Origin: Ulota crispa
Taxonomy: Eukaryota > Streptophyta > Bryopsida > Orthotrichales > Orthotrichaceae
Assembly: GCA_963920765.1 (NCBI GenBank)
Contig: OY987246.1
Location: forward strand, 17,170,868 to 17,234,867
Reading direction: 5' to 3'
Length of the DNA stretch: 64,000 nt
Part shown: positions 1 to 61,850 of the stretch, piece after piece
Numbering within the stretch: position 1 is the first letter of the stretch
How the letters are laid out: every line of letters begins with the position of its first letter
The notes under the pieces: generated by a model
The model's input: the letters and a program-made list of their open reading frames with translations, nothing else
The model's database searches: none
What the model was told of the DNA's origin: nothing
Translations under genes and position numbers: made by a program

Positions 1-860
1 TACCTATGGCTAAACTACGTTGCCTGATTTTCTGAAATTTTTATAGAAGGTGAGGAATTCAAAGATCTACGTGGGAATGTTATTTCTTCATTCCGTCATT
101 TATTGAAGAAGTTATGCATGAAAGTCTTGAAAATGTTGCTCCCTAGGCAGCTAAAAACTTCTTTAAAAATTCCATTTTTTTCAAATAAAAATCTGAAATA
201 GGTTCTTTAGACTTATATAGACGTGGGGAGCTTTGAATCATTCAATTTTGATAGATGAGATGAAAGTTATGAGGAGTTTTTGTTTGCGGGCAGTTCTAGA
301 TTCTCAACTCTAAAATAAACTTTGAAGTCCTTTATTTTACTCAATTTTTATTATTTTGGAAAAAAAAAACAATACCAAAGGATGTAGATTAATTATCACA
401 ACATTATAACCGTTGGGATTTGCATTTTAATAATTAAGTTCTTAACAATGTAGTGTTTTGACTCATTTTCTATTTCTTTTTACTTACTATTTTTTCCCAT
501 GTGTTGTATAGCTCCAATTGATTTGAAAATTCTCCCACACATACCTAACTTGGTCTCCTACATGGGAAAAATAAACCTCAACTTTGTGTAGAGTGATTTT
601 TCTGCTCTAAGAGTGGTCAAAGCGTTCTGAAATTTCTAGGCAGCAGCAATTTGTTTTTTTTCTTCAATTCAGATGTAAATATCTCACTCATTTTATCTAG
701 ATTGAGCTGATTTTTTTACCATGTGTATCTCTTGTAGTCTAATGTAAGATCTTATGGTTGGATTCTAGTAAAAGCTTTTTTTCTTACCATTGTACTTGCT
801 TCCCCAAAAGTGGCAGTTAATTGTGCTTTTCACAAAAGAAATGGCTTGGTCCTTTAGGGG
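1..860 (+). mobile_element. piggyBac-like non-autonomous element, subfamily P (left end outside window)
   Basis: The right terminus TGGTCCTTTAGGGG is followed by TTAA (861-864). The body matches the copies at 6352 and 60920. By comparison with the 931-bp copy about 70 bp is missing on the left. Confidence 0.7.
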
Positions 861-925
861 TTAATGCTAGGGTTTCATATGGTTTATGGCCTAGACAATG
901 ATACTTAATTTCTTTGCAACATTAA

Positions 926-1879
926 CCCCCAAAAGACCAAGAGTCCGTTCAATGACCACTTGCAAACTTGGGTAGGGTCATACAAAGTCAAATTTCATTG
1001 GATGTTCTCAAAATTGTCATCAAATGTAAGTATGTATCTCTAAATGGATGTGTAATTTTTTCCCCAATTGGATGCTTGATTCAAAAGTTATGCTTCCCAA
1101 AAGAAATTGGGGAGCTTGAGCAATTTGGGCATCTTTGGAGGATCTTAAGCTAAAATTCTCATCAACTTTTGAAATTTGGCACGTATGTAACCAATAAAAT
1201 GTGGTATACAATTGTCAAAAAATAAACAAAAATTGAGTTCTTAAATCACATTCTAAGAGGAGTCAAAGTTTGTTAACTATGTACATGCAGTTTCAAGAAA
1301 ATGAACATTTCCTTCTAATTTCAAGCTCTATTATTGTGCAATTTAAAAATTCAAAGCTCTTGACATTTTTTTGACTTATTTCAAATGTTTATCTCTAACT
1401 TTTCCCAATTCAAATTTGAAATAAATGACTTCTTCATTGTACAAGAAATCATGAAAAAGAAAACTAATGTAATGCTAATTCACTTAACCTCCTTGTATTA
1501 TAGGGTGATATAGAATAAGCTAAATTCTATATTTACTTTTGAAATTTTTCATGAATGAACCTGACATCATATACATATGAATGGTCAAGGACATCATTTA
1601 TGTGAAGAGCAAAAATTTTACTTTGGGAGGGCTCAAAGTCTGTTGACCTTATTTTGGAGGAATGAAAAAAAAGAAATTTTTCACACTTCCAACGTTATTT
1701 TCTTACAATCCACGCTTTGAAATGGGCTGAATTTTTTTACACACATTCATTTATTTGTATAACACACTTTTGTACAGTTGAAATTTAGGAAATAAAATTT
1801 TAATTTCAATTTTGGACAATGCCCTAAAAGTTTGCAATTTCTGAGAAATTATCTCAAAAAACACCCCTGGTCCTTTAGG
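926..1879. mobile_element. piggyBac-like element, subfamily P, degenerate
   Basis: The left end is TTAA (922-925) followed by CCCCCAAAAGACCA. The right end GGTCCTTTAGG is followed by a decayed TTAA-like site. Length about 950 bp fits the subfamily. Confidence 0.5.
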
Positions 1880-3301
1880 TAATAATATTGTTTTTAAGTC
1901 CTAATTGTTGTTAAAAAAAATCTTGCAATAATTATTGATGAAAATCATTGTAATACTCGTAAGTAGTTATATAGTGTAAATTGTTGAGAAACTAGTGTGG
2001 GGTTAACCTATTTGCAATATTTAGTGGAGATTCTTATTTTTTGATTTTGATTTATTTTGAAAAAAGTTCTTTGAGATTGTTTAAAGCTTTTTGGGTCCTT
2101 TGGAAATTAGCTTTCCAAAAAAGCTTGCATTACTCTCTTTACCCCTAAAATCCAAGGCCATATTTTTTGTCAAAAATCACTCAAAATTGCCATTTTTGTT
2201 GCACTCATCCAAGGAAACAAAGAAATCATTTTCTCAGGTTGTAGGACTTGTGCTTTGATTGTCTAAGATTATGTGAAGATACAATTTTCATCAAGTTTGA
2301 CCATACAAATGGGAAGATGATTACATTCAAAGTTAGGAGAAAAGTTTTTTGAGAGCTGCTTTGAAATTTCAGATATCTTTGACTACCATTTGTGAGAAAA
2401 AGTTCCACTACAAGTTTTGATTTTCTAATTTTATTATGGTGAGGATCATGTTAGTGGGTGATTGCGAGAAAGGCCTCACGTTTTTGTCTCAAAATGCCTC
2501 TTTTTGGGTGTAATACTAGCAGAACTACCTGTACTACAAGTACTATACAACATCTTCACAATAGAAATTTGAAATGTCCCTCCCATCCCAAATCTATTGG
2601 AAACAAGGCACGTGGCATGTCATTTAGGAAGGCCAACTATCAGTAATGGCAATTCAATGAATTGATGAAAAAAAATTCACATCCTTAGATGATGTTAGTG
2701 GTCAGTGGTTCAAAGTAGTTCTAGTTAATGGAGGGGAGTACTACACAAGCATGCGGAGCAGAAATTACCAAAATTTCTAGGCTGCCATGTTTTCAATTTT
2801 AATAATTACAAAAAAAACTCAAAAAATAAAACAAAAAATGGCCATTTTTGCTCTATTCAATACACTTGAATCGATGAAATTGCTTTCTTGGAGAAGTTTG
2901 TTTTCTTTCTCCAATGCTTGACCAAATGATGCCCACTTTGACAGCACGTGGAAGGCAAAGAATTCACAATTTCCTAGAACCCTTCTAAAAATCCATGAAA
3001 TGCTTTATTATGAACAACTTCCTTGATTTATGGCATGAGAATTGCTTTTTTGGACCCAAAATAGTACTAAAAACCCCCCAAAATGGCCAAGGTAGACACC
3101 TATTTGGGGGCTGTTCAAAAATAGTAAAATAGTTTTAAAAAATTTGAAAAAATTATTGAAGGTATGTAACTATGACATGTACCTTCCTCTGAAATTTCAG
3201 CTCAAAAGAACTTGTTGAGAAAAAGTTACAAGCCAAAAAGTACCCCCAAGAGTGCAAGGAGACACAAAATAGTACAAGTGTTTCTTGCAATCACCCTAGT
3301 A

Positions 3302-3639
3302 CAGTGGTGCTTGGTTAGCGTCAACACTTTGGGCTTGTACAAAGTGTTGACCTTATCCAAGCATTGATCATAAACAATCCCTCCATTTGTGTTACTTTCC
3401 CTAATTATAAGGGTTGTAACTTTGGAGGTGCTTTCCCACCCATGTTTTTGGTACACTAACCAAACGCCTTTCTAACTAAAGAGTCAAAATGGGAATTGAT
3501 GAAAAGAGAACGTTGACCATATGCAAGCACATGACCTTAACCAAGCTCATAATACATGATATTGAGCAAAAGGGGAGTGGGGTTGTGATCTTATCCAATT
3601 GTTACTCTTACAAAGATTGACGCTAACCAAGCACCACTG
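3302..3639. mobile_element. Tc1/mariner-like MITE, 338 bp, TA TSD
   Basis: Terminal inverted repeats CAGTGGTGCTTGGTTAGCG and its complement lie between TA dinucleotides (3300-3301, 3640-3641). It has the same length as the copy at 47259-47596. Confidence 0.8.
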
Positions 3640-4057
3640 TAATATACCAACTTTTAGATGTAACAAAGATGGGAAACACCTCTAATATAATCCTGCATTC
3701 CTAGCATGTGCTTCAAATTGAGAATACATTGGCCATTCTGATAATTATGATTCTAATTTCATGTTTTCAAAATTTTAAGATCCAAATGACCCATTAATTA
3801 ACACACACATTCTCCACAAGTCAAAAAAATAAAAATGAAAAAAAACCAATTTCTCCATTTGTAATTAAATGCAGAAGGGCCAATGTCTTCATAACATTCT
3901 TAAAACTATGGGCAACTCTAGAAAACGGAACTAGTAGTCATCTTTTGTGTTCTCAATTTCAGAATTTAAAAAAAAAACAAAATTAAACAAAACAAAAAAG
4001 CATAGATTTCTGAAAACAATTGTACTGTACTTGCAACAAACATTCAAACAAAAAATT

Positions 4058-4060
<3 letters not shown>

Positions 4061-4113
<53 letters not shown>
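4061..4113. repeat. (TA)26 microsatellite
   Basis: An uninterrupted TA run. It generates spurious Tyr/Ile ORFs on both strands. Confidence 0.98.
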
Positions 4114-4117
<4 letters not shown>

Positions 4118-4435
4118 TTTTGGTTTGATATGTTTTGATTTGGACATGTTGCCCCCACTGTGCTGCTGCAACTGAAAGTCAATTTTTTTTGGTCATGCTC
4201 TCCTTGCCCCATAAACTAAATTTTGGGGTTTTCCCACTCTAACTTTTGAACCATAAGTCAAATTAGCATAAAAATTGTGTGCGAACAAAGTTCTTTGTAT
4301 TTTGCATCTTCATAACAAGTTTCAGAAAATCCCAACAAATATTGTCAATGTATGAGCCTACCCAAAATCCATTTTGTCCTCCATAGGAACAATGCGACTT
4401 TAGGGGTTAATTAGTTGACGCTTGAGAGCATCTGT

Positions 4436-4550: not shown

Positions 4551-4620
4551 TCCACAAATACTTATTTGACAAATCATCAAGTGGAGAAGAAGATAGAGCT
4601 TATTAAACTTAGAATGAATA

Positions 4621-5030
4621 AAATAGGCACACCTATACCTGGCCATTTAAGGATTTGGGGTACCTCAAGGTCTTAGAAAACAAAATAAAATAAAACCCAT
4701 AGAAATAGACTTTCAACAAGCTATCATGGAACCTTATTTTTGTGGAAAAAAATATTGTGGATTATTTTATATTAAAGTGCAAAGTTGTAGCTCATAGGAT
4801 CTCTATTAGCAACTCTAGACTAACCTTGAAATTGCTTGGATGTGTTCCTATACCAACACTAGATGGTCCCAATCCCAATTGTCTCAAAGCAGCTTAGCAA
4901 GTGATATGTGGCAGGATTTGCTTATGCAAGTAGAGTTCACCGCTCCACTATGGGTTCAACAGTGTGTGGTGAATCCCTCAAAAGTAGGGTGCGGAATTGG
5001 GGACTGTACAGGAATGGATGCTTCTACCTT
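4621..5030. mobile_element. TA-inserting MITE, family E (AGGTAG termini)
   Basis: Left flank TA (4619-4620) and right end TTCTACCT followed by TA. The interior ('GGGGTACC...AAGGTCTTAG', 'GCTCATAGGATC') is shared with copies at 9272, 44240 and 59419. Its last base is part of the insertion site of the next element. Confidence 0.65.
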
Positions 5031-5032
5031 AG

Positions 5033-5405: not shown

Positions 5406-5408
5406 TTA

Positions 5409-6323: not shown

Positions 6324-6351
6324 TAAAGAAGTGTCTCTTTGACTTGCTTAA

Positions 6352-7503
6352 CCCCTAAAGGACTGTTATCCCCTTCGGGGACAAATGGGATTTAGGACAT
6401 GTACCTATGGCTAAACTACTTTGTATGATTTTTTTGAAATTTTTGTTGAAGGTGGGGAATTTAAAAATCTATATGGGCATCTAACTTTTTCTTCATTCCA
6501 ACATTTGACAAAGAAGTTATGCAAGAGTTTATCAAACTAAGGGAGAAGGGACAATTTGGGTAGGGCCTCTTCTTTGTAAGTGGGTGTTGACTCCAAAAAG
6601 GGTTAGCTCTTACGGGCACAAGGTGTGGACACTTGTGCAAAGGGAAGTGGAGTGGAAAGAGTCCCTCTTGGAGGACTTTCAGCCCTCCATTCCTTTTGCC
6701 CTTGTAAAATCTGGTACTTTAATTTTTTGAGTGGTTTGTGTGTTTGTTTTTAAGTTCATTTTTTATCCAAGTTGTAGTGAGTCAAGATTCCTTGATTTTT
6801 ATCAATTGGATTTGTGTAATTCAAATTTCTAAATATTACATAAATCCTTCAAATTTGCTTAGTGTATTTGCAAATTTCATGACCTTCCAACATTCAAAGA
6901 TTTTTTGAAGTATGTTGTAAGATAGGTACACCCAATGGCGTGGGTGTACCCAATGCCACTGAAATGTCAAGCATGCAATCATTTCTAACACAAAATGTCA
7001 GCCATATAAAGATGGCTTACCTTCTGAAACTTGAAAGGTAAGCCATCTTTATATGACTAACATCTTTTGTCAGAAATGACTGCATGCTTGACATTTCAGT
7101 GGCATTGGGTACACCCATGCCATTGGGTGTACCTACCTTACACCTCCAGTTCATTTGAAAATCATCCCACACATATCTAACTTGGTCTTCTACATGGAAA
7201 ATAAACCTTGAATTTGTGTAAAGCTTTTTTTTTACTATAAGAGTGGTCAAAGACTTTTGAAAATTTTGGGCACAAAGGAAAAAAAATGCTTTGTCACTTC
7301 AAGTGTCAATATCTCACTCCCCTCCATCTAAAATGAGCTATTTTTTTTTTTGCAAGTACCTCCCATAGTCAAGGGCAGAATCCTACAATTAGATTTTTTT
7401 TTTTTTTTTTTTTTAAATCCTTTTTTCTTACCTTTCTACTCATTCCCCTAAAAGTGACATTTTTAGTGGTTTTTACAGGAAAAAGGGCTTGGGCCTTTAG
7501 GGG
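6352..7503 (+). mobile_element. piggyBac-like element, subfamily P
   Basis: TTAA (6348-6351) then CCCCTAAAGGAC at the left; CCTTTAGGGG then TTGA (7504-7507) at the right. The 1152 bp include a 219-bp foldback insertion (6920-7138), leaving about 930 bp like the other copies. Confidence 0.75.
6920..7138. mobile_element. Foldback MITE, 219 bp, TA TSD, nested in a piggyBac-like element
   Basis: The two arms (about 100 bp each, ends AGATAGGTACACCC and GGGTGTACCTACCT) are near-perfect complements, so the element folds into one long hairpin. TA flanks both sides (6918-6919, 7139-7140). Confidence 0.8.
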
Positions 7504-7554
7504 TTGATTGAATACCCACTGTCGTCTTGACTCTAATTTATTAACCCCTCAACA

Positions 7555-8186
7555 CCCAAGGGGCTCAAACTGCGCCCCTCTGAATTTTGTTCACAAATGC
7601 CCAAAGTTTTTTGAAGATTTTTTTTTGGTTATTATTATATCTAAATTGTTGTTGAAGTCTAGTTTCAGCATCTAGAGTGATCTTCAAAATGAATTAACAT
7701 GATTTGTCTATTCAAGATTTTGTGCAAGGGTGTCCATTGCAAATCTTCACTTTCTAGTGTTGAAGACTCTTGGAATTGAGCCTCAAGTATACTAGAACTT
7801 GGAGAAAAAATTGCATTAAAATTTAATTTAAAAAAATTGTAGAATAGATTTTGAGAAGCCGTTAATTGATTGGGGTTATGCATGTTATACTTTACATACT
7901 CATATTTTTTTGGTACCCTCAATTTTAGGTTTGAGATGCAAAAAGAGGATTGAAAGACTTCAAATCACTTTTGCAATTTTAACACCCTTGTGATCAAACA
8001 TTATAATCTTTCAATCCATAAGTAATATAGTTGCAATTTCTTTTTGTATGCAATTTACAACATATCTACTTTGAATTTGTACAGTTACATTTCAAAGAAA
8101 ATTGATAAGATTGATCAAAATGCTAGCATTTTATTCACTTTCAAGCAAATTTTGAGATACTCCAATATTTCAGGGGTGTTGAGGGG
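7555..8186. mobile_element. piggyBac-like element, subfamily Q1, 632 bp
   Basis: TTAA (7551-7554), CCCCTCAACACCC...GGGTGTTGAGGGG, TTAA (8187-8190). Perfect 13-bp termini; the interior is unrelated to subfamily P. Confidence 0.75.
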
Positions 8187-8328
8187 TTAAGTGCAATGAA
8201 AATTTGAGTACGTGCTAATTAAGGACTTTTTTAATTTTATTTCATTGGTCTAGCACAACTAACCTTGAAATGCATTCAAGCGAGAAAAAAGAATAGAATC
8301 ATCCATGTGTGTACGTTTATCCAAATGA

Positions 8329-8458: not shown

Positions 8459-9271
8459 TAATCAATTGTTCTTGAATTCCATCCAAAACTTGGTGCACCT
8501 AATGTTTATGTAAGAAAAAGTTGGTAGCTTCATTCTTTTTTCCACTTAATAATATTAGGGTAGTCAATGTCAAAATGAGATAAATAAGAACTAAATCAAA
8601 TTGTCCATAAACTACCTACCACATGATAGCCAAAGTTGGATGAAGTGTTGAACTTGCTTTGGGCCATGCAATTAAAGAAAAATCACATCCACAATCATTA
8701 GATAAGTGTCTACAATGACTTAATTTAGTCACTATCTAGGCAATTTTCACTCATTGTAAACAAAATTTCTCTTCTAGTGATGAGGTTTGCAGCTACTCTT
8801 AGCCCAAGTTCAATCACTTGGTTTGAAGGGGAAAATATTAAACTCTATCCTCCATTAGCGGAGTCTTGTTTTAGGAGGAGTTGCTAGTACAAGGTCTAGT
8901 TATTTTTGGTTGCGGCTTGGTTGTGGCGACCACAAGTATGTATAAACAAAAAAAAGTCAGAAAAGCAAGGTAAGATTGCAATGTGAATTTGCCCAAAAGA
9001 ATTCCTTGCAAGTTGTTGTTTTGTTTGCAAAGTAAAGAGATGGAGGTCATTGGAGTTTGAGCATCTTGGATAGATCCAAAAATTGGAAAATCAATATCTA
9101 GAAAAACAACAATAACGTAATTAGCATAATCTAGCCTCTTCTTTACTGGTTTTGGACTATTGGGGAGGATGCAATGCATGAAGAGAATCTACCTCAAAAG
9201 AAGTTTGTTTAGGCACCTTACTCAAAAAGTGAGCCACAACTACAAGGTCAAAACCTCTTGTAGTGTAACCA
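8459..9271. other. Intergenic, no gene seen
   Basis: AT-rich DNA without a credible coding frame. A weak TTCTCTTCTAGTG motif near 8768 may be the end of a decayed CACTA-type element. Confidence 0.4.
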
Positions 9272-9676
9272 AGGTAGACATACCCATTCCTGAGCGTTTA
9301 AGGGTTTAGGGTACCACAAGATCTTGGAAAATACAAGAAAAAATCCAAAGGGTTAGTGTTTCAACAAGCTATCATGGAATATCATTTTTGTGGAAAAAAG
9401 TATTGTAGAATATTTTATATTAAAGGGCAAGTTACAGCTCATAGGGTCCCTAAAAGTAGCTCTAGACTAACCTTGAAACGGCTTGGATGAGTTCTTATAA
9501 TGGCACTTGACAGTCCGAGTCCCAATCCTCCCAAATCAGCTTAGCTTTTGACATGTAGCAGGATTCGCTTTTGCAAATATTGTTCACTGCTCCACTTTCG
9601 GTGCAATATTGTATGATGAAAACCTCAAATCTAGGGTGTAGAATTGAGAGCTGCTTGGGAATGGGTGTGTCTACCT
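9272..9676. mobile_element. TA-inserting MITE, family E, 405 bp
   Basis: AGGTAGACATACCCATTCC...GGAATGGGTGTGTCTACCT with TA at the right (9677-9678) and CA at the left. The interior matches the other family E copies. Confidence 0.7.
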
Positions 9677-19090: not shown

Positions 19091-19097
19091 AGTTTAA

Positions 19098-19698
19098 CCC
19101 TTAAGCGCCCAGGCCATGTTCACCAAAATGCAAACTTAGTCACACTCTATCCAACTAAGGGCGGCTTCACACTATGACCGGTTAAATTGAGAGGCCCTCA
19201 AATTGAGTGGCCAAACTTTGCCAAGAGGGCAAGACAATCTGCTGAAAATAGACAATAAATGTTGAAACTGACACCTAAAATTGATGGCTTCTCGCACATA
19301 GTTTGGGTCCAGCATTTTGCTAGACCCAAACTTCCCTTTGAGAGGCCGTCAACCTTGAATGATAAAATGTTGCCATGCAGGCAAATGGCAAATGACGGCC
19401 TTTGGAGTTTGGCCTCTAGTATGAAGGCTTGAGCGGCCGGACTCTCGATTTCATGCAATCTGATTGGTGCACACCAATAGCCTCTTGACCTTCGACCATA
19501 GGGTGAAGCCGCCCTAATTTTTCATGACAAATGAGATTAGTAAAATCCAACCGTATTGATTGGTAGGGGACATAAGCCCAGAAGTACAAGAAAAAAGGAC
19601 GCATGATTTGTCTTTATTAATGAAACAATTATAACAGTCAAACATGGAACTTTTTTAATTGTGAGAGGCAATATTTGGGTCTGTGGGGCACTTAGGGG
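19098..19698. mobile_element. piggyBac-like element, subfamily Q4, with nested Harbinger-like element
   Basis: TTAA (19094-19097), CCCTTAAGCGCCC...GGGGCACTTAGGGG, TTAA (19699-19702). Some 60% of its length is the insertion at 19159-19514. Confidence 0.7.
19159..19514. mobile_element. Harbinger-like MITE, family F, 356 bp, TSD TAA
   Basis: GGGCGGCTTCACACTATGACC-type terminus and its complement GGTGAAGCCGCCC; TAA at 19156-19158 and 19515-19517. Same family as 44270-44634. Confidence 0.78.
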
Positions 19699-19702
19699 TT
19701 AA

Positions 19703-22676: not shown

Positions 22677-22679
22677 TAA

Positions 22680-23070
22680 GAGCATCGCCAATGTAGCTAT
22701 AAACAAACTTGGTATAACACACACGTTTAGTTTTTAATTAATAATTGATCATAGTATGAAAATTATATTATTTGAATGGCATGAATTTTTTTGTTGTAAA
22801 AACACACTAAAACTTTGGTTTAGACATTGGTTGATTTTTAGATACATGGCATCAAGTGTTAGCTAGCTTCCAAAAAATTTAGAGGCCTTGCCAAATCAAG
22901 CCTAAAAGAGAGAACTTCAACCAAGGGCACGGTATAATGATGTGTTGTGTTTTTACAACAAGAAAAGTTATGCCATTCAAATAATATAATTTTCATACCA
23001 TGATCAATTATTAATTAAAAACTAAACATGGGTTATACCAAGCATGTTTACGGCTGCATTGGCGATGCTT
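22680..23070. mobile_element. Harbinger-like MITE with long inner hairpin, 391 bp, TSD TAA
   Basis: GAGCATCGCCAATG...CATTGGCGATGCTT between TAA (22677-22679) and TAA (23071-23073). Inner arms of about 100 bp (around TTAATTGATC-like sequence at 22735-22800 and 22960-23030) are also complementary. Confidence 0.7.
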
Positions 23071-23073
23071 TAA

Positions 23074-23301
23074 CCCTTGAAGGGCCCTTGGGCTCTGGAG
23101 CTATAGTACCAAATACAATTGCAACCAATATTCAAAAGTTTGATTCAACTGAAAACTAAACTAAGTGTTACAACCATACATATTGAAGGGTTTTTTGATG
23201 GTGGATGCATAATTTTTTTGAAAAGCCCTCAAAGCAGCTCAAATATGTCTGTACATACAATTGTACATATGGCTGCAAATGGCGTTCAGGCCCTTCAGGG
23301 G
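23074..23301. mobile_element. piggyBac-like element, subfamily Q5, 228 bp
   Basis: TTAA (23070-23073), CCCTTGAAGGGCC...GGCCCTTCAGGGG, then CTAA. Homologous to 54633-54856 in the opposite orientation. It abuts the Harbinger-like element. Confidence 0.7.
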
Positions 23302-23344
23302 CTAAATTATTTGCCACTTCCAGGGCTTTTCATAACACAACAAT

Positions 23345-26812: not shown

Positions 26813-26848
26813 TACGTCTATGTGGGGGTAAAGGTGGAAAAATCGCAA

Positions 26849-44239: not shown

Positions 44240-45051
44240 AGGTAGGTATACCCATACCCAAGCATTTAAGGGTGGCTTCACACTATGACCGGCCAAGTTG
44301 AGAGGCTATCATATTGAGTGGCCAAACTTTGCTGAGAGGTCAAGGAAATTTGCTAAAAATAGACAATATTTGTTGAAATTGACAGCAATAAATGTTGAAA
44401 TTGATGGTCTCTTGCTCATAGTTTGGGTCTCCATTTTTGTTGAATCCAAATTTTCCTTTGAGAGTTTGTCAATCTTGGATGATAAAGTGTTGCCATGTAG
44501 GCAAATGGGGGATGACAGCCTTTGGAGTTTGGCCTCTAGTGTGAAGGCTTGAGCAGCCGGACTCTTGGTTTTGTGCAATCTGATTGGTGTAGACCAATGG
44601 CCTCTCAACCTTTGGCCATAGTGCAAAGCCACCCTAAGGGTTTGGGTTGGGGTACCTTGAGGTCTAGGAGAAAATAGGAAAAAAATCTATAGGGGTTAGT
44701 CATTCAACAAGTTATCATGGAATGCCATTTTTGTGGAAAAAAATATCGTGAAATATTTTATATCAAAGGGCAAAGTTAGTGCTCATAGGATCCCAAAAGC
44801 AATTGTAGACAAGTAGTGAATTTGCTTGAGTGTGTTCTTATGATTGAAGATGTTCTTGCTGTAACGTTCACTTCATGGACCATGGACCTAATCCCAACAC
44901 TCCCAAATCAACTTAGCAAATGACTTGTGGCAAGACTTGCTTGTGCAAGTTGCGTTCACAACACCTCTTTTGGTTCACACCATGTGTGTGATGAACACCT
45001 CAAACATAATTTGGAAAATTGGGAGCCGCTCGGGAATAGGTAGGGTTACCT
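44240..45051. mobile_element. TA-inserting MITE, family E, split by a Harbinger-like insertion
   Basis: AGGTAGGTATACCCATACCC... and ...GGTAGGGTTACCT between TA (44238-44239) and TA (45052-45053). Removing 44270-44637 restores the uninterrupted family E sequence seen at 59419. Confidence 0.75.
44270..44634. mobile_element. Harbinger-like MITE, family F, 365 bp, TSD TAA
   Basis: GGGTGGCTTCACACTATGACC-type terminus and complement ...GCAAAGCCACCC; TAA at 44267-44269 and 44635-44637. Inserted in the family E element. Confidence 0.85.
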
Positions 45052-45651: not shown

Positions 45652-46012
45652 TTTTTTTTCCATAGCTACCAAAAAAAACATGAACATCACAAAATTTGCA
45701 AGTCTCACCTTTAGAGATCCCAGTTTTGTTGGGTCAAAAGCACAAAAAGGAGTACTAATCATGAACACGTCTACAAAATATCAGCCGGAGTTGAATTGAA
45801 AGCTTGTTTAAGCAACAGGTTGATCCAAACAAGTCCCCCTCCTAAGCGCCAAAATTTTCAAAAAATGTTGCAAAACGTAGCGAACCAAGACCTAAATTTT
45901 AAGTCCAGTGTGAATTGCCAAGTCCCAACCTATGGCTCTCAACCAATCAAATTTTGGGATTTCAATATGGGCCATGGAAACTGGGACTTAATGTCAACCA
46001 CCTCTAAGTTAA

Positions 46013-46947
46013 CCCTTTAGTGCCCGGTTGACCACTTTTGGGTTGATTTTGGTACTCCGTGGTTTTTGTCATCCTTGTTCTATTTAGTTTGCAAAAACAC
46101 AGAACGTAACGGAGTTGGGGGTTTAGTTTGTGCTCCTACTGGAATAAACTTCAAAGCAAGGCATAAAGAAACATGGTAGCTATGTGTGTTTTACATATGA
46201 AGCTAGGAATCTCATACGGGTGTAACAAACGAAATACTAATTTAGTGCAACCACAACGTGGCCCCAAAGCCCACATATTGCACCCAAAGTATCCAATGCT
46301 AACTCTCTAGCAATTGTGCAGAAGATGCATGCTTTATTTACAAGTTCTATGTATAGCAAATTTTAGCTACAACATTATGTATTCTATGATTCCTTAGGCT
46401 ATGAAGGTTTGCGATGCTAAATATGGGACCTTGTACCTCAAATGACACCCAATGTAGATGATATTAACCAATTGGATTTTGTGGAAACATGTTCCATGCA
46501 TGTTGTATTCAACCGTACATGTGTGGCCATGTTCGTATTCTTCCAATGCTCAATTTCACAAATCATGTCGTGAAATGCACAGATTGACTTGAATTTTGAA
46601 TTTTTTTTTGGGAATGCAGTAACCTAAAATGGGGCAATAGCCTCTACAAATCCCACCACTATCAAAAGTTTCAATTGCACGATTGACACTAACTAGTTAG
46701 AATGTCTCACGTTTTTGTACAACAAGTTTTTTTGGATCATCAAGCTTCTTTCAATCCTCATGTGGAATTGTTCCAATAAATCAAACTTTTTTTTATATTC
46801 ATGTTGCCAAAGTTTATAGCTTTGATATGTCTGGTCCGATCTGATTTTAAAATTACAGATTTTGTCCTTAAATGTATTTTGTAGACAGTATAGTGAAAAT
46901 ATAGTGAAAATTTGAGGTGCCCCCAATGGTTGACGGGCACTAAAGGA
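46013..46947. mobile_element. piggyBac-like element, subfamily Q2, 935 bp
   Basis: TTAA (46009-46012), CCCTTTAGTGCCCG...CGGGCACTAAAGGA, TTAA (46948-46951). Confidence 0.75.
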
Positions 46948-47258
46948 TTAAACAACAACATCGCCTTCCCAAAGAGCATTGTTCACATATGTGGCTAAGG
47001 GCATCGTTGTTCTAAGGCACAAAATTAAGGTCAGCAAGTAAGGAATTCCTGCGTCTTTTCTTGTCAAATTAATGTCAAGTGCCCAATTGTAAATTGATTT
47101 GGCCCTATCCTGACACAATTTCACGTTCCTCTTTTGAAGAAATTTTTTCCCTCTCATATGAATTTTGCTTGTGAAAGCCATTGTCGCATTTGAGCATTTG
47201 CTACAAACTTGCTATAGGGGGAGCCCCAAGGCATTGGAAAACAAGTAAAATTACAATA

Positions 47259-47596: not shown

Positions 47597-47793
47597 TACA
47601 AGAACATTGTTTTGAGAGGGCCTTATTGTGATTTCACATTGCCATGGTACCATTCGAGCCCCAAAAGTACCTTCAACACCCAAAAATTTGACAAGCAAAA
47701 GTGCCATTAATGTCTCATCAACTATCTAAATATATACCTTTTTTTAATGTGACAAATAATGTGAACAACATAGTTTTGAATCGGAATTTTTAA

Positions 47794-48719
47794 CCCCTAA
47801 AGGACCATGGCCTTTATTTTGTCAAAAGACACTCAAAACTGCCACCTCTATGGCAAAGAGTAAAAAAGTTTGAAAATCAATATTTTTGCATGTTTGACCG
47901 TAGGATCTTGTACTATACTACTATAAGAATGTGTTATACAAAACTCAAGAACTTTGACCTTATAGGTTGGAAGATATTTGCATTTAACAAGTAAAAAACA
48001 GCTTTTTTTGCACCTTGCAAGACTAGATTATTTAACTTTGAACTTTTTTAACTTAAATTTTTTGCACCACAGAGTTTGGAATTCTATTTTTTCATGGTGG
48101 GAAGTTGAGTTGGTAATCTTGGGAAAAACAAAAAAACAAAAAATAATTAATTTTCATTTTAAAAAAAAAAACATTAGGCAGAAGAAGGTGTGAGATTGGA
48201 AAAAAACTTAAATTGCTAATAACCTTGCAATGGAATTGAAATGCAATGATCCCAATGGTGAGATTGTTCTAGAAAGCAAACTTCACCCTCTCCAACAATT
48301 TTTTTTGAAAAAATATTAAAATTGCATTCAAAAATAAAGTTTATAAGTTATTTTTTCAAGAAGATGCTTGAGTTGCCCAAAAAACAAGATTGGCCATAAC
48401 TTTCTCATAACTAGTCCAAATGGAATGAATCAAAGCTTCAGATGTAGACAAAGATATAATCTATAAGAAAAAAAAATTAAATTTTTTTGTCAGGTTTTTA
48501 TAAGAATTTTTTTTGCTGCCCGAAGTCCTGAAATTTGTGCTTATTTGGGCATAACTTTTGCTCCATGGCATCAATTGGAATAAAAATTAGATGCCCACGC
48601 ATAGTTTTGAATTCCCCATCTTCAATAAAAGTTTCAAGAAGTCATGCAAAGTAGTTTAGCCATAGGTACATGCCCAAAATCCCATTTGTCCATTGAACAA
48701 ATAGTTGGTCGTTTAGGGG
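47794..48719 (-). mobile_element. piggyBac-like element, subfamily P, 926 bp
   Basis: TTAA (47790-47793), CCCCTAAAGGACCATGGCC...TGGTCGTTTAGGGG, TTAA (48720-48723). Confidence 0.85.
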
Positions 48720-49139
48720 TTAAACCTTATTTACCAGTGTTTATAAGCACTTGAGCCAATTATTAGTATTATATTTGGGATCACTGCAGGAGGGTACCTC
48801 CAAAGCATTGAGTGAGTTTCCTGGGAGAGAGCCCTCTTCGGTAATTGTGAACCAGTAATTCCAACCGGGGATTAATCCATAAGTGACCACAGTAGCTAGT
48901 AAACACTGCTAAACGTGCTAATCATTCAAATTTAACTCTGTGATGTTGTGTTTTTTTCTGCTAAAACTTTTTTATAAAATTTTACTAAAAAGATCGTAAG
49001 AGCCTTGGTAAATTTTGGCCACATTTGTGAACAGCTCCATAGACATGGTTGTGGATCATCTGGTAACGTTACTATTAATATTGATTTTTGTGAGGTCAGT
49101 GCTTCGTGATCATTTGTTGTAACTTGTAAGGCATCCTCA

Positions 49140-49631: not shown

Positions 49632-49634
49632 TAA

Positions 49635-50032: not shown

Positions 50033-50036
50033 TTCA

Positions 50037-50962
50037 TCCCTAAAGCCCCAGGGCCTTTATTTTGTCAAAAGGCACTCAAAACTACCATATATATTGCAAA
50101 GAGTAAAAAAGTTTGAAAATTGGTCTTCTTGCATATCTAACCATAGGATCTTGTACTAGACTAGTATAGAAATTTGGAAAAAAATCCAAAAACTTTAACC
50201 CCACATATTGCATCATATTTGCATTTAAAGTGTAGAAAACAAACTTTTTTGCATCTTGCATGATTAGATTATTTGACTTTGAATTTTTTTAACTTAAAAC
50301 TTTTACACCTCAAAATTTTGAGGTTTATTTTTTTGTAGTGGAAAATTGAGTTGAGAATTTTTGGAAAAAAATTAGAACAAAAAATACTTGGTTTTTATTC
50401 TTAAAAACAATTTAGGTAGAACAGGGTATGAGATTGAACAAAAACTTGAATTGTTAATAACCTTAAAATGGAATTGAAATGCAATAATCCCAATGGTGAG
50501 ATTGTTCTAGAAAAAAAACTTTCACCCTTTTTGACAATTTTTTTGAAAAAAAAGTTAAACTTGCATTCAAAAATGAAGTTCATGTGTTTTTTTTTCAAGA
50601 AGATGCTTGAATTGCCCAAAAACCAATCAAGATTGGCCATAACTTTCTCATAACTAGTCCAGATGGAATGAATCAAAGCTTTAAATGTAGAAAAATCTAT
50701 AACTCATGAGAAGAAAAATCCAAAAAAAAATCAAGTTTTTGTTAAAAAAATTTGCTGCCCAATTAATCTCCATAAATTTTTGCTTATCTATGCATAACTT
50801 TTGCTTTTGGGCATAGATTGGAATAAAAATTGTATTCCCCAAAAGCTGATGTGTCTTTGCAATCTTCAAAAAAGTTTCAAAAAATCAAGTCAAAAATTGA
50901 GGCCGTAAGTACCTACCCAAAATCCTATTTGTTCCCCCAAGGAGACAACATGGCTTTAGGGG
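50037..50962 (-). mobile_element. piggyBac-like element, subfamily P, 926 bp
   Basis: TTCA (50033-50036), TCCCTAAAGCCCCAGGGCC...GGCTTTAGGGG, TTAA (50963-50966). Same length as 47794-48719 and colinear throughout. Confidence 0.75.
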
Positions 50963-51263
50963 TTAAACATATTTGTGGAGTTGGTAAATGGGTTGTGGTA
51001 TAATTGACATTTGCTACTTACAAGAAGTTTTAATTTGGGATCTCAAATAGCTCACTATAATAGTAGTGATTTATATTCCAACTTCTTTGTTAATCTCAAA
51101 TGCAGTGAAGGTGTGAATCCATTCCAAATACAAGAAAAAATCTTGTGTTGTATTGACTACAAAGGGTCTTTCAAACATTTAGGATTTAGTGTAATGTAGC
51201 AAAAGTGTAGTATTTTATATGTAGTATGAGAAGATTGGTTGACCATAGTTGCCCATTAACTTA

Positions 51264-51778: not shown

Positions 51779-51874
51779 TTACTTATAGAAAAGGATCAAT
51801 TCAATGCAAGGGCTTTTAGTACTAACCATTAAATGATTAATTGATAGGACTCAGTAATAGTGGAATAGCTATTA

Positions 51875-54377: not shown

Positions 54378-54632
54378 TATACCCTTTAATTCTGAAATGA
54401 CAACCTTCATTTGTGCCATAAATAGAATTGAACAGTATGAATAAGAACATGATCAATTCTAGTGGTGATTGAATAAGTGACGTGCAATTGTGCAACCACT
54501 TGTTTAGTTGTTGATCCTGAAGTTGTCATCAAGATGCTGTTGAAATGTCTTTGTTAACCAGTAAGGTTCTTACAGCCCCTCTTGATCTGTGGAGAAGGGT
54601 TCAGTGCAGGATTGGGGGGAACCGTCGTTTAA

Positions 54633-54856
54633 CCCCTGAAGGGCCTAACCGCCCTTTGCGGCTGTATGTATGACCGTATGTATAGACGTATTTGAGTTGT
54701 TGTGAGGGCTTTTCAATTTTTTTTATGTACCCGTCATCATACAACCCTTCAATATGTATGGTTGTAACACTTAATTTCTAACTGATTCAAATTTTTGGAT
54801 ATTGGTTGCAATTGTATTTGGTACCGTAACTCCAGAGCTCAAGGGCCCTTCAAGGG
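54633..54856. mobile_element. piggyBac-like element, subfamily Q5, 224 bp
   Basis: TTAA (54629-54632), CCCCTGAAGGGCC...GGGCCCTTCAAGGG, TTAA (54857-54860). Confidence 0.78.
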
Positions 54857-55018
54857 TTAAGCTTAGTGTATTGCACAAAAAATTGGTTGAATGGATCAAA
54901 ATTGGTTAAACTTTTTCAAAAAAGCCTTATAGTTACAATATGATTACAAAAATATTGTAGGAAATCATTGGAGCATGCCGGTAAAAAACCAATTGAAAGT
55001 GAGAAATGCTAGACCTTA

Positions 55019-56036: not shown

Positions 56037-56092
56037 CAAAAAATAAATTCAATGCATCCATTATGGATACATGCAAGTTTGTTTTTTAATGA

Positions 56093-56363
56093 GGGTTGCT
56101 TCACACTATGGCCAACCAAGTCAAGAGGCCATAGGATTGAGTGGATGAACTTTCTTGAGAGGCCAAAGAAATGGGTTGAAAAAAGGCAATAATGTGTTGT
56201 TTTTGAAACCTTTGGATGACTTGAGTGTGAAGCCTCCAAATGCCAAGTTCAAAATTCAAACTCTCAATAGTGAACTTTCATAGCCAAAGTGTGAAACTTG
56301 CAAAGGCCAAGCCTAAAATTCAAGCTCAAGTTATCTCAACCTTTGGCCATAGTGTGAAGTGAC
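56093..56363. mobile_element. Harbinger-like MITE, family F, about 271 bp
   Basis: GGGTTGCTTCACACTATGGCC-type terminus and complement ...CATAGTGTGAAGTGACC. It directly abuts the TTAA of the next element; TSD not clear. Confidence 0.55.
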
Positions 56364-56368
56364 CTTAA

Positions 56369-57029
56369 CCCTTGAGCACCCACGCCATATTCAGGTTTTT
56401 GGAGACCGATAACTTTGATGCATCATATCTCATTCAATGATCCACAAAAAGTGACCATTGAAAATAATGGAATACCTACTTAGAAAATGGCTTGCAAAGT
56501 TTGGGAACAACTCACTACACAAGATGGGAGATTATAATATTTGATCAAACAGCTTGTAATTACAAAATCTCATTTTTTGGTAGGTAGTTGCTATTTGATG
56601 ATTTTTACAAAATTCTACAAGCCCATGATTCATCTTAAATTTTGTGAGTAGCAAGATTAAATGTGAATGCACACACTTGTAAATTATTGAAGATTGCACT
56701 TCTTTTTATGTCAAGTTTTAGGGCTTCAAATGGCTATAGCACATAACACAATGACCGGCACAGTCGGTGATGGTTGCCATAATTTTTGTTTTCTACATAC
56801 AAACAATACCACAAACAACAACAAACAATTGCAACAACCAAGTAATCAAACCTTATAATCTTTGCATTTGTATGATAGATTTTCACAAAAATTACAAATT
56901 TACACTTGTCAAAAAATTACTAACAAATATCTACAATAAATTTTTCAATTATGACTTATACTCCAAATTATTTTCAGAACTCTCTCCCACACTTGTCTGG
57001 ACCCCTGTTTTGATTGTGACGCTTAGGGG
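56369..57029. mobile_element. piggyBac-like element, subfamily Q3, 661 bp
   Basis: TTAA (56365-56368), CCCTTGAGCACCC...GTGACGCTTAGGGG, TTAA (57030-57033). Termini are imperfect. Confidence 0.65.
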
Positions 57030-57342
57030 TTAACTTAGTGCTGCTGTGAGCATCAGGATGTGACGTTCCCCACCAGCAGCAGCTCAGTCACAAACGTTGT
57101 CAAAGTGAGCTCTGTACGTTGTTGGTAAGCGATGGAGCGTCACTTGTGAAAGTCTACAGTATATTCCATGCCCGTGCTGCTTTGAATTATCCATCATGAA
57201 TTTTCAATGCTTTTGTTCCCACTTCACATGTGCAACATGAAAAAAAAAACTCCAGAAAATTCACTTTCACACCAATCAGGGTTCACTCCTCTCCAGTATT
57301 TCTCCACTTTGACGGTATCGTCACAGTGCACAGTTCCACATA

Positions 57343-58412: not shown

Positions 58413-59358
58413 CCCCTAAAAGACCAAGCCCTTTTTAATGTGAAAATCACTAAAAAATTGCCACTTTTGGGGAAATGAGTAAAAAGGTAGCAAATAAAGT
58501 TTTTTTTGAAAATCCAACTGTAATGTCTTGCCCTAGACTATGGGAGGTACTTGTGGGAAAAATTTCAGCTCATTTTAGAAGTAGAGGAGTGAGATATTGA
58601 CATTTGAAGTGGAAAAAAAAAGTTTTTTTCCCTGCTGCCCAAAAATTTCAAAAGCCTTTGATGGCTCCTATATCAAAAAAATTGCTCAACGCAAAATTGA
58701 GGTTTATTTTTTCCATATAGAAGACTAAGTTAGGTATGTGTGGGAGAATTTTCAAATGAATTGGAGGTGTGGATCATACTTTGTAAAATCTTGCAATATC
58801 GTAAGGCCATGAAATTTGCATATACATTAGGCAAAATTGGAGAATTTATGTAAAATTCAGAAATGTTAACTACTTTGATCCAAATGGTGAAAAAAAAGGA
58901 ACCTTAGTCTACTACAACTTAGAAAAAAAAGTAAAAAAAAAACATAAAGAGCTCACAAAAGGAAGGCAAATTTTTTTACAAGAGGCAGAAAGAATGGAGG
59001 TTTGCAAGTCCCATACCTACCTGCAAACTAAAACTTCTCATAACTTTCATCTCATCAATCAAAACTGAATGATTTAAAGACTCCCAAATTTGTATAAATC
59101 TAAAGAACCAGTTTCAAATTTAAAAATAAATAAATGCAATTTTGATTTTTTTTGGGGCTGCTTGCCCTCGTCCTTTTCTAGAAATTCATGCATAACTTCT
59201 TCAATAAATGTTGGAATGAAGAAAAATTTAGATGCTCATGTAGATCTTTGAATTCCCCATCTTCAATTAAAGTTTCAAAAATCACAAAAACTAGATTAGC
59301 TATAGGTACATGCCCGAAATCCATTTGTCCCCCAAAGGGACAATTGGTCCTTTAGGGG
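58413..59358 (-). mobile_element. piggyBac-like element, subfamily P, 946 bp
   Basis: TTAA (58409-58412), CCCCTAAAAGACCAAGCCC...TTGGTCCTTTAGGGG, TTAA (59359-59362). Family F-like fragments flank both sides, so it may have landed in an older element. Confidence 0.85.
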
Positions 59359-59418
59359 TTAACCTCTCAACAAAGTTTGGCCACTCAATCCCAAAACCTC
59401 TTGATTTGGTTGGCTATA

Positions 59419-59830
59419 AGGTAGGTATACCCATACTTGACCATTTAAGGGTTTGGGGTACCACGAGGTCTCGGAAAAGCCAGGAAACAAATAAGAAGGA
59501 TTAGCTTTCAACAAGCTATCATGGAATGTCATTTTTGTGGAAAAAGGTATTCTAGAAGATTTTATATTAAAGCACAAAGTTATAGCTCATAGGATCTCTA
59601 AAAGAAACTGTATACTACCCTTGAAACTGCTTGGACGTGTTCCTATAATGGCACTTGCTGGTCCCAATCCCAACCTTCCCAAACAAGTTTAGCAACCAAC
59701 ATGTAGCAAGATCTACTTGTACAAGTAGTGTTCACTGCTTCACTTTGAGTTCATACTTCATAGTGAATGATGAACACCTCAAATGTAGAGTGTGACATTA
59801 GGGAACGGTCGGGAAAAGGTATGTCTACCT
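59419..59830. mobile_element. TA-inserting MITE, family E, 412 bp
   Basis: AGGTAGGTATACCC...GGTATGTCTACCT between TA (59417-59418) and TA (59831-59832). The uninterrupted reference copy of the family. Confidence 0.8.
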
Positions 59831-59832
59831 TA

Positions 59833-60915
59833 GCGGGATTTTGGTTATCTATAGTGTAATGATGCGGTGGTAGTCGTGTGGCGGTAGTGGCAGGTGTTTC
59901 ACTTATTAAAGTTTCAAGTTGAGCAAATGTAGTAAAAAATTCAGTGGAAGTGGAAAAGAGTTACTCAAGATTTTGTCCCAAAGATGGAGAGATATAGTTT
60001 AATATTTCAAATAAACTTATTTTACTCGTGCATTTAATCACCCTCAATGGAAATGCTCTTGGTGTTGTCTCATTTTCTTTGAAATTTTTGTGACAAAGAG
60101 TATGACAAGTGTTGCTTGCTTTTCTTATTCAATGAGCACCTCAGATTTAGCATAATGTTGTGTTTGCGAATGTGAGTTATCCGTATTGTCTGTGGCATGT
60201 ATTGCCTAACTTGGAATATATAGTTCTTAGCTTAACATAGTAAATGCATAATTTTTTGATCTTCTGGCTAAAATCAAGTGCAGTATTTGTTCTTATTAGT
60301 TTAATGTTTGATACGGGAATTATTAATCTCTATGTTATTAGTCTAATTTTTCTCAAGAGGGAGGCTATTTGGCAGCTTGCTACCAGGCCTTGTGCGCATT
60401 GCCTTGGTTTTGCATTCTTTCCTTGATTAACGCAACCCTCACTTCCTTGCCAGAGGTACCCAAATCAAAACCCTAAATTGGAGATAAGAAAATTATAAAA
60501 TGTAATTAGTTGATTTCATGTGAACTTTATGTATGACATGTTTTCTTCAAAAATGATACGATCTTCTTCTGTAAATAGAGGACCACCGTGTAGCGTATTT
60601 TAAGTTTTGAGGATCTGTTTACAAAAACTTAGTGTGAGCCATTAAAATGATGTGTTTTTGAGTTTGAGCATAACTAGCAATATAGTGTTTACTGTATGAC
60701 GTATGTCTGTATCTAGTTCCTTCTATACGTTGAGTTTTTGAAAAAAATTAAGTTTTAAATTATTTATTATTGTCACAAGTTGAATACACATTAACATGGG
60801 ATGGTTACTTTTTCTAATTGTACTAATATGGTAAGAAAAATTCCACCGTGATGATCTTCATTGTGATTTACATTCATGATAAGAGAAGTGGCGTAATTGA
60901 ACAAATTTTGTTTAC
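59833..60915. other. Intergenic, nothing recognised
   Basis: AT-rich; only short open frames with no protein character. Confidence 0.4.
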
Positions 60916-60919
60916 TTAA

Positions 60920-61850
60920 CCCCTAAAGGACCAACTGTCCCTTCGGGGGACAAATGGATTTTGGGCATGTACCTACAGCTAATCTACTTTTTGTGATTTT
61001 TTGAAACTTTTATTGAAGATGGGGAATTCAAAGATCTGCGTGGGCATCTAGTTTTTCCTTCATTCCGACAATTATTGAAGAAGTTATGCATGAATTTTTG
61101 AAAACATGTGAGATTGGGCAGCCAAAAACTTTTTTTTAATAATCTTTTTTCAAAATATAAATCTGAAATTGGTTCTTTAGATTTATATATATGTGGGGAG
61201 TTTTGAATCATTCAATTTGGATTTATGAGTGAAAAGTTTTAGTTTGCAGGCAAGTACGGGACTCCCATAATTCCTTTCTTTTGCCTTCGGTACTTAACTT
61301 TTTTGTGCTCTTTGTGAATTTGTTTTTTGACTTCTTTTTTTTTCAAGTTGTAGTAGACTAAGGTTCCTTGTTTTTCACCATTTGGATCAACGTTGTTCAT
61401 ATTTCTCAATTTTACATAAATCCTCCGATTTTGCCTAGTGTATTTGCAAATTTCATGGCCTTACGGAATTGCAAGATTTTACAAAGTATGATTCACACCT
61501 CCAATTCATTTGAAAATTCTCCCACACTTACCTAACTTGGTCTTCTACATGGAAAAAATAAACCTCAACTTTGCGTAAAGCAATGTTTTTGATTTAGGGG
61601 CAATCAAAGGCTTCTAAAATTTTTGGGCAGCAAGGAAAAAAACTTTTTTTTTCATTTCAAATGTCAATATCTCACTCCTCTACATCTAGAATGAGTTGAT
61701 TTTTTTCCCACAAGTACCTCCCATAGTTTAGGGCAACATCTTACAATTGGATTTCCAAAAATAATTGTTTTTCCTACCTTTCTACTCATTCCCTCAAATG
61801 TGGCAGTTTTTAGTGATTTTCATAAAAAAAATGGCTTGGTTCTTTAGGGG
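60920..61850 (+). mobile_element. piggyBac-like element, subfamily P, 931 bp
   Basis: TTAA (60916-60919), CCCCTAAAGGACCAACTG...TTGGTTCTTTAGGGG, TTAA (61851-61854). The best full-length plus-oriented copy. Confidence 0.85.

What the first reader, a model, noticed from the sequence alone, without database searches (positions are those of the whole stretch)
1..61850. A TTAA-inserting, CCCY...RGGG transposon class (piggyBac-like) is abundant in a plant genome
At least 14 elements in several unrelated-interior subfamilies (P, Q1-Q5) share termini starting CCCYT and sit in TTAA, usually intact on both sides (for example 7551/8187, 47790/48720, 54629/54857, 58409/59359, 60916/61851). TTAA TSD plus CCY ends is the diagnostic pair for piggyBac. 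This superfamily is well known in animals but rarely described in land plants, so a set of non-autonomous lineages driven by a transposase outside the window would be notable.
Basis: partly seen in the sequence, partly recalled or inferred. Interest (0 to 1): 0.82.

Follow-up and report, generated by a model that had tools for sequence, protein, structure and literature searches.

The report
piggyBac transposons abundant in a plant
This plant genome carries thousands of short jumping-gene relics that insert at the letters TTAA, together with many genes for the matching piggyBac-type enzyme, a transposon group best known from animals.

Summary
The window has about 14 TTAA-flanked elements with 13-15 bp YCCYT inverted ends: 8 of family P and 6 others, one of which may be two fragments. 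Seven have certain intact TTAA on both sides; 7551 should read 7541. The window's own genome (274.8 Mb) has 120 matches to the piggyBac transposase domain, best E 1.3e-73. Five of 20 transposase loci fetched have clean TTAA/CCYT-type ends (random centres in the window give 6-8% pairs); two of the five are copies of one 5.2-5.3 kb element whose likeness stops at TTAA. P's terminus CCCCTAAAGGACC occurs 9,597 times, 8,154 directly after TTAA. Element P4 interrupts another repeat; 20 of 20 uninterrupted relatives fetched have four bases there (TTGG/TTGA/TTAG) where P4's copy has TTAA. Kolobok, the other TTAA superfamily, has RR..YY ends. Not shown: which transposase moved the window's families. 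The genome encodes dynein heavy chains, so the plant probably has swimming sperm. PiggyBac was listed for land plants before: a new member of a known kind, notable for scale.

The parts
1..864 (-). P-family copy (P0), cut by the window edge; right TTAA 861-864 intact, left end in the genome decayed
   Evidence: self-alignment, end scan, genome stretch upstream
922..1888 (-). P-family copy (P8), left TTAA intact, other end decayed; inserted in another repeat family
   Evidence: joined flanks match 27602-27733, 32451-32640, 45131-45406, junction itself not resolved
2138..4410 (+). P-family copy (P6/P7) whose two ends (2138-2471 and 4175-4410) are separated by extra sequence; right TTAA intact, left reads TTTA
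   Evidence: that both ends belong to one copy is inference
6348..7507 (-). P-family copy (P1), left TTAA intact, right mutated; nested palindromic insert 6915-7142
7541..8190 (.). TTAA element, TIR CCCCTCAACACCC (13/13)
   Evidence: 40 scored genome copies, nearly all over the full 650 bases
19094..19702 (.). TTAA element, ends CCCTTAAGCGCCC / CCCCTAAGTGCCC, with a nested TAA-flanked Harbinger-like MITE at about 19158-19520
23070..23305 (.). TTAA element, second copy of the 54629 family in reverse (78% identical); one side reads TTAG
46009..46951 (.). TTAA element, ends CCCTTTAGTGCCCG / TCCTTTAGTGCCCG
   Evidence: 40 scored genome copies, most over the full 943 bases
47790..48723 (+). P-family element (P2), TTAA both sides
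50033..50966 (+). P-family element (P3), left TTAA mutated to TTCA, right intact
54629..54860 (.). short TTAA element, ends CCCCTGAAGGGCC / CCCTTGAAGGGCC
56365..56783 (.). left part (TTAACCCTTGAGCACCC...) of a repeat family; left TTAA intact, right end not defined
   Evidence: genome copies match within its bases 1-419
56833..57033 (.). right part of another repeat family ending ...CGCTTAGGGGTTAA; hybrid with, or neighbour of, 56365-56783
   Evidence: genome copies mostly end at 57033; left limit shows no TTAA
58409..59362 (+). P-family element (P4), TTAA both sides, inserted in another MITE family (empty-site example)
60916..61854 (-). P-family element (P5), TTAA both sides; query for the genome copies
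56107..56321 (-). uninterrupted relative of the P4 insertion target (empty site) inside the window
44284..44360 (-). second uninterrupted relative of the P4 target in the window

Best explanation
These are non-autonomous DNA transposons (MITEs and internally deleted elements) of the piggyBac superfamily in a plant. Shown: discrete elements with 13-15 bp YCCYT inverted ends, strict TTAA targets, a 4-bp target duplication, thousands of termini genome-wide, and a host genome with many piggyBac transposase domains, some inside 5-6 kb elements with the same kind of ends. Inferred: a piggyBac transposase binds the short inverted ends, cuts at the C, joins the element to a TTAA site, and so moved and multiplied these elements; several lineages did so at different times; most transposase copies listed in this assembly now carry stops.
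For: TTAA at element ends and mixed bases outside; genome copies of P5: 25 of 30 fetched loci (one is P5 itself) with TTAA on both sides, flanks unrelated; 8,154 of 9,597 P termini preceded by TTAA; a related end class TTAACCCYTWARYGCCC at 5,223 places, reversed control 0. Target duplication: uninterrupted relatives of the P4 site, 20 of 20 fetched (of 38 rows that span the site), have as aligned four bases TTGG 14, TTGA 4, TTAG 2 where P4 has TTAA; keeping one TTAA gives the best join for the two better of three in-window relatives. Transposase: 120 PF13843 matches, all over the curated cut-off, a few of them two pieces of one locus; a stop-free frame scores 8e-60; its 369-aa domain matches piggyBac 6x67 (1.9e-19) and piggyBat 9c0f (6.1e-16) in sequence. 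Transposase loci: 7 of 20 stretches had a TTAA-flanked CCYT-type pair with at least 11 of 14 TIR matches, 0 of 20 for each of 12 other 4-mers. Random centres in the window, which is full of such ends, give 13 of 232 or 17 of 224 by flank length; Fisher p for 7, 6 or 5 of 20 lies between 0.0003 and 0.023; at 13 or more of 14: 2 of 20 against 0 of 456. Five are clean (L018, L021+L062, L024+L063, L026+L065, L027). L018 and the L021 element are 88.8% identical over 5.4 kb while their flanks are no more alike than shuffled sequence (p 0.44 right, 0.96 left). A 649-bp MITE at C1:571414-572062 resembles the transposase-bearing L026 element at the corresponding ends: 73 bp at 75% (E 2e-8) on one side, 28 bp at 86% (E 0.022, little beyond the TIR) on the other.
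Against: No window family was tied to its own transposase: of 16 subterminal comparisons with 7 elements the best p were 0.010 and 0.013, and P's best was 0.08. P-like ends near transposases in L012 and L025 turned out to be separate P copies, so one of the seven pairs (L012x) is false and L020x is uncertain; because TTAA-CCYT ends are common here, some pairs may be chance. Eight of ten unextended and five of ten extended stretches gave no pair at that threshold. The best stop-free domain (L009) has N at the place of the first Asp of the third catalytic motif (GGVNVGDQ), though L005 has GGVDVADQ. The TTAA duplication can formally be written as a TA duplication with A..T element ends. Element 56365/57033 is not a clean two-ended element.
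Confidence: 0.95

Rival explanations
1. Kolobok superfamily elements, which also duplicate TTAA.
For: Same 4-bp TTAA duplication; Kolobok is reported in chlorophytes and red algae (PMC9587614, passage).
Against: Kolobok termini are 5'-RR..YY-3'; here they are YCCYT, and CCCCTTAA/TTAAGGGG do not occur in the window. piggyBac domains lie inside elements with these ends. A Kolobok transposase was not searched for.
Confidence: 0.02
2. Tc1/mariner (Stowaway-like) MITEs with a TA duplication and ends ACCCCT..AGGGGT that happen to sit in TTAA.
For: The sequence T-TA-ACCCC...GGGGT-TA-A is the same string as TTAA-CCCC...GGGG-TTAA, so duplication length alone cannot separate them.
Against: A TA target leaves the outer T and A free; here -4 is T in 24 of 24 and -3 is T in 23 of 24 window ends, and -4 is T in 58 of 60 ends of 30 genome loci. 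Elements with the same class of ends carry piggyBac transposase domains. A mariner transposase was not searched for.
Confidence: 0.02
3. PIF/Harbinger (Tourist-like) MITEs with a 3-bp TWA duplication.
For: MITEs of that look are present in the same window, for example at 19158-19520 and 44267-44637, with TAA on both sides and GGG..CCC ends (read).
Against: For the TTAA elements a 3-bp reading gives TAA on the left and TTA on the right, which is no direct repeat; ends start with C, not G; the transposases found inside such elements are piggyBac type. A Harbinger transposase was not searched for.
Confidence: 0.01

Closest known systems
piggyBac superfamily (T. ni piggyBac, piggyBat)
   Same: TTAA duplication, C-starting short TIRs, DDE_Tnp_1_7 transposase with detectable sequence similarity to 6x67 and 9c0f.
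   Different: Host is a plant. The five clean transposase-bearing elements are 5.2-6.0 kb; a passage of PMC10813416 calls about 2,472 bp typical but reports 1.23-9.51 kb in animals, so this is within range. Open frames upstream of the transposase domain (354 aa in L009; 539 aa in L027, whose last 64 aa already resemble the L009 transposase frame) share 34% over 204 aa and have no Pfam match.
CMITEs of Acropora corals (piggyBac MITEs)
   Same: 13-14 bp TIRs such as CCCCTCAGTGTCCG and CCCTTTAAGCCCTA, TTAA duplication, several families in one genome with piggyBac elements (PMC2872659, passages).
   Different: CMITEs are about 100 bp; those here are about 0.23-0.95 kb and in a plant.
PiggyBac entries in plant repeat annotations
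   Same: Ceratopteris richardii partial genome lists 1,230 PiggyBac copies, Dracaena cambodiana 38.
   Different: In the passages I saw these are table rows of repeat annotation, without ends, targets or transposases; here about 4,000 elements or more are implied by the intact P termini alone (8,154 termini, two per element, inference).

Membership tests
piggyBac | 4-bp TTAA target duplication | tested here: met
   formal TA reading noted
piggyBac | TIRs of about 12-19 bp with a CC[C/T]T terminal motif (PMC2872659 passage) | tested here: met
   13-15 bp TIRs, YCCYT starts; 56365/57033 excepted
piggyBac | transposase with DDE_Tnp_1_7 domain in elements with such ends | tested here: met
   (120 matches); five clean elements of 20 loci, above the background; two copies of one element with unlike flanks
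piggyBac | catalytic Asp residues conserved | tested here: inconclusive
   TVDE and TCDN in L009, third motif GGVNVGDQ there, GGVDVADQ in L005; motif search in L001-L008 found few others, several frames broken
piggyBac | the window's own families are moved by such a transposase | tested here: inconclusive
   no firm subterminal match to 7 elements; a link only for another MITE
Kolobok | termini 5'-RR..YY-3' | tested here: not met
   ends are YCCYT
Tc1/mariner | TA target without strict constraint on the next bases (recalled) | tested here: not met
   outer T and A near-invariant
PIF/Harbinger | 3-bp TWA duplication (PMC12595863 passage gives TWA for Tourist) | tested here: not met
   flanks read TAA / TTA, not a direct 3-bp repeat

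The most novel reading that the evidence does not exclude
A land-plant lineage with swimming sperm in which piggyBac, not Mutator, Harbinger or mariner, is a leading source of MITEs: several long-lived piggyBac lineages with 5-6 kb elements that may carry a further, unassigned open frame upstream of the transposase, and well over 5,000 non-autonomous copies, overlooked because plant MITE classifications leave out the TTAA class.
Probability: 0.45. Interest if true: 0.65.

Novelty: new member of a known kind. Interest (0 to 1): 0.55.

Why it matters
The 207-genome plant MITE survey sorts elements mainly into Tc1/mariner, Harbinger, Mutator, CACTA and hAT; in its main text and in that of a 2025 review the words piggyBac and TTAA do not occur (supplements not seen). 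Here one TTAA family alone has 8,154 exact TTAA-joined termini in 275 Mb, so a whole class may be filed as 'unknown' elsewhere. A plant-resident piggyBac is also of practical interest, since the studied piggyBac excises without a footprint (PMC7351741 passages), and its history (vertical or acquired) is testable.

Tried and rejected
Generic TIR scan with any 4-mer as duplication: TTAA not enriched (11 pairs against 0-17), so the case rests on CCYT ends plus TTAA. Transposase remains inside the window: 10 open frames in or beside the elements and 20 others gave no transposase in Pfam, only matches below the curated scores (best E 0.0047, DUF6047, for 58805-59065); not all of the 131 frames of 75 aa or more were scanned. 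Empty sites for P8 and P2 by joined flanks: matches exist, but the best join is not at the ends, and random joins in this repeat-rich window give such matches in 58 of 2,600 cases with arms of 50 bp or more, against 3 of 13 elements, so only P4 is used. For P4 the third, weakest in-window relative prefers a join 6 and 4 bases off. First I counted 56365-57033 as an intact two-ended element; searches do not bear that out and it was taken off the list of certain ones. L012 and L025 as partner of P: rejected, the P-like ends are separate P copies. Subterminal link of window families to 7 transposase elements (two of them with uncertain ends): nothing firm. One search used wrong coordinates for minus-strand frames of L018 and L026; repeated correctly for L018, not for L026. 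One search read L045 in the wrong orientation; corrected. Papers were searched, and in their listings I saw no detailed account of piggyBac elements in a land plant; the library holds only open-licence papers, and the main piggyBac evolution paper (PMC5381638) is not held. Of all papers cited I saw passages only.
Full report
What was claimed.

Checking the observation. Reading the named places shows TTAACCCCT...(A)GGGGTTAA or a close variant at four of the five; the fifth start (7551) should be 7541. Self-comparison and end scans give 14 elements: eight P-family copies and six others, about 10.1 kb or 15.7% of the window with nested inserts left out. One of the six, 56365-57033, is doubtful: the 39 other scored genome copies match only within its bases 1-419, its right 200 bases match other copies most of which end at the same TTAA, and no TTAA marks the left limit of that part; it is a hybrid or two neighbours. 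Seven elements have certain intact TTAA on both sides. The P copies differ much (49-83% pairwise in a global alignment), so the family is old or mixed. The inverted ends are 13-15 bp long and the two ends of one element differ beyond that. No open frame scanned in or beside the elements resembles a transposase (10 frames).

Is it more than chance? A profile made from the element interior alone finds 22 places, 17 of them directly after TTAA (binomial P 1.5e-34, with the caveat that the profile came from this window). At 24 element ends the four outside bases are T 24, T 23, A 23 and A 23 of 24, and positions -5 to -14 are mixed, so homology stops at TTAA and the constraint covers four bases, not two. 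A plain count of TIR pairs with any 4-mer as duplication does not single out TTAA; the combination with CCYT does.

Whole genome. The window lies at C5:17170868-17234867 of an assembly of 274.8 Mb in 157 contigs. P5 has 40 scored candidates out of 10,024, most of them full length; of the 30 loci fetched (one is P5 itself), 25 have TTAA on both sides and the flanks are unrelated. The terminus CCCCTAAAGGACC occurs 9,597 times (reversed control 3) and TTAACCCCTAAAGGACC 8,154 times (control 0): 85% of the termini follow TTAA. At two ends per element this implies about 4,000 P elements or more (inference). A related end class, TTAACCCYTWARYGCCC, occurs 5,223 times (control 0). Element 7541-8190 gave 40 scored copies of 4,166 candidates, nearly all over its full 650 bases at 90-92%; 46009-46951 gave 40 of 210, most over the full 943 bases.

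Target duplication. P4 (58409-59362) sits inside a copy of another MITE family. In the window, relatives at 56107-56321 and 44284-44360 run across the site without interruption; of seven joins tested, keeping one TTAA scores best for both (77 and 40), and both copies or none score lower. For the third, weaker relative at 19184-19259 a join with TT only scores 28 against 27, and the best of 625 shifts is 6 and 4 bases off. In the genome, where the best 40 of 641 candidates were scored, 38 places span the joined site; the 20 fetched all have, as aligned, exactly four bases there: TTGG 14, TTGA 4, TTAG 2. P4 thus lies in a copy that reads TTAA where its relatives read TTGG or similar, and its insertion added one extra 4-mer. 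This is what a TTAA-specific 4-bp duplication predicts. The string can formally also be written as a TA duplication with A..T element ends; the near-invariant outer T and A speak against it.

Transposase. PF13843 (DDE_Tnp_1_7) has 120 matches in the genome, all above the curated cut-off, best E 1.3e-73; a few are two pieces of one locus, and 10 of the 120 rows have no stop inside. The tool's 14 control genomes gave none; their kind is not stated. A stop-free frame in L009 scores 8e-60, and its 369-aa domain matches the solved piggyBac (6x67, 1.9e-19) and piggyBat (9c0f, 6.1e-16) transposases by sequence. TVDE and TCDN are kept; the third motif reads GGVNVGDQ there and GGVDVADQ in L005, so L009 itself may be inactive. 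Which Asp residues are catalytic is recalled, not tested.

Do the transposases sit in elements with these ends? I fetched 20 transposase stretches of 5.5-6.5 kb and extended ten of them by 2-2.5 kb. Seven of 20 have a TTAA-flanked pair with CCYT-type starts (at least four of five positions) and at least 11 of 14 TIR matches; each of 12 other 4-mers gives 0 of 20. Since TTAA-CCYT ends are common here, I also took random centres in the window: 13 of 232 and 17 of 224 give such a pair, by flank length; Fisher p for 7, 6 or 5 of 20 lies between 0.0003 and 0.023, the centres being overlapping and not independent. At 13 or more of 14 matches it is 2 of 20 (L018, L026) against 0 of 456. Five are clean: L026+L065 (5,746 bp, 14/14), L018 (5,230 bp, 13/14), L021+L062 (5,308 bp, 12/14), L024+L063 (6,010 bp, 11/14) and L027 (5,586 bp, 11/14). 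L012+L064 is a false pairing with a neighbouring P copy and L020+L068 has two possible left ends. The firmest case is L018 and the L021 element: 88.8% identical over 5.4 kb, while outside TTAA their flanks are no more alike than shuffled sequence (p 0.44 and 0.96); the BLAST alignment itself ran about 70 bp past the right end.

Link between MITEs and transposase elements. A 649-bp element at C1:571414-572062, itself joined to a P copy through a shared TTAA, resembles the L026 element at the corresponding ends: 73 bp at 75% (E 2e-8), and 28 bp at 86% (E 0.022), the latter little more than the TIR. For the window's own families the evidence is weak: L024 resembles 19094 at both ends (51 bp at 76%, E 2.5e-6; 27 bp at 85%, E 0.007) and L027 resembles 46009 at one (48 bp at 75%, E 7.5e-5), but with the TIR left out the best of 16 comparisons reach only p 0.010 and 0.013. 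The partner of P is unknown; only 7 of well over 100 transposase places were compared.

Host. BAHD hydroxycinnamoyltransferase-like and hexokinase exons mark a plant. Dynein heavy-chain stalk domains (PF12777) give 20 matches in the genome; since flowering plants and conifers lack dynein heavy chains (recalled), the host is probably a bryophyte, lycophyte or fern, with the small genome favouring the first two (inference). The species is not established.

Mechanism (inferred from studied piggyBac; PMC7351741 passages): the transposase frees the 3' end of the element, forms a hairpin over the flanking four bases, opens it to leave a TTAA overhang, and joins to an unpaired TTAA target; repair gives TTAA on both sides, and excision can restore the site. 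Non-autonomous copies need only the ends.

Known or new. Kolobok, the other TTAA superfamily, has RR..YY ends (PMC9587614 passage). piggyBac hallmarks quoted from PMC2872659 are met. PiggyBac is listed for all taxonomic groups including land plants in PMC4438587 (Table 2 passage) and appears as table rows for Ceratopteris and Dracaena, while the main texts of two plant MITE works contain neither 'piggybac' nor 'TTAA'. So the kind is known; the number of copies, the complete elements with transposase and the empty sites in such a host are what this adds.

Noticed in passing
44267-44637, 19158-19520, 56092-56330, parts of 58200-58409/59363-59430: MITE family with ends GGGYGGCTTCACACTATG and TAA on both sides (Harbinger/Tourist type by its ends); one copy nested in a TTAA element and one interrupted by P4.
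   Followed up: partly
6915-7142, 26250-26814, 27744-28080, 4618-5032, 9221-9678, 44614-45054, 59416-59833: Several repeat families end in ..TACCTTA or start TAAGGTAGG; one is inserted in P copy 6348-7507, where the relative at 61490-61495 is uninterrupted. Class not worked out.
   Followed up: no
60248-60440: U2 spliceosomal RNA match (108.8 bits) just left of P5.
   Followed up: no
22676-23074, 49117-49643, 51257-51785: Long near-palindromic MITE family starting AGCATCGCCAATG; at 23070 it abuts TTAA element 23070-23305.
   Followed up: no
31561-35438, minus strand: Several open frames that may be exons of one gene; four of them gave no Pfam match.
   Followed up: no
11149-11320: 44-bp tandem repeat containing AAACCCTA-like words close to the hexokinase gene.
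   Followed up: no
L009:529-1590, L027:794-2410: Upstream open frames (354 and 539 aa) of two transposase-bearing loci share 34% identity over 204 aa and match no Pfam family.
   Followed up: partly
C2:36765124 and 36779670; C7:18203169 and 18223004: Pairs of transposase matches with identical scores in opposite orientation 14-20 kb apart, pointing to local inverted duplications.
   Followed up: no
C1:7929887-7930539 with C1:7930536-7930969; C1:570482-571417 with C1:571414-572062: Elements of different TTAA families lie head to tail sharing one TTAA, as if the duplicated TTAA of one served as target for the next.
   Followed up: no
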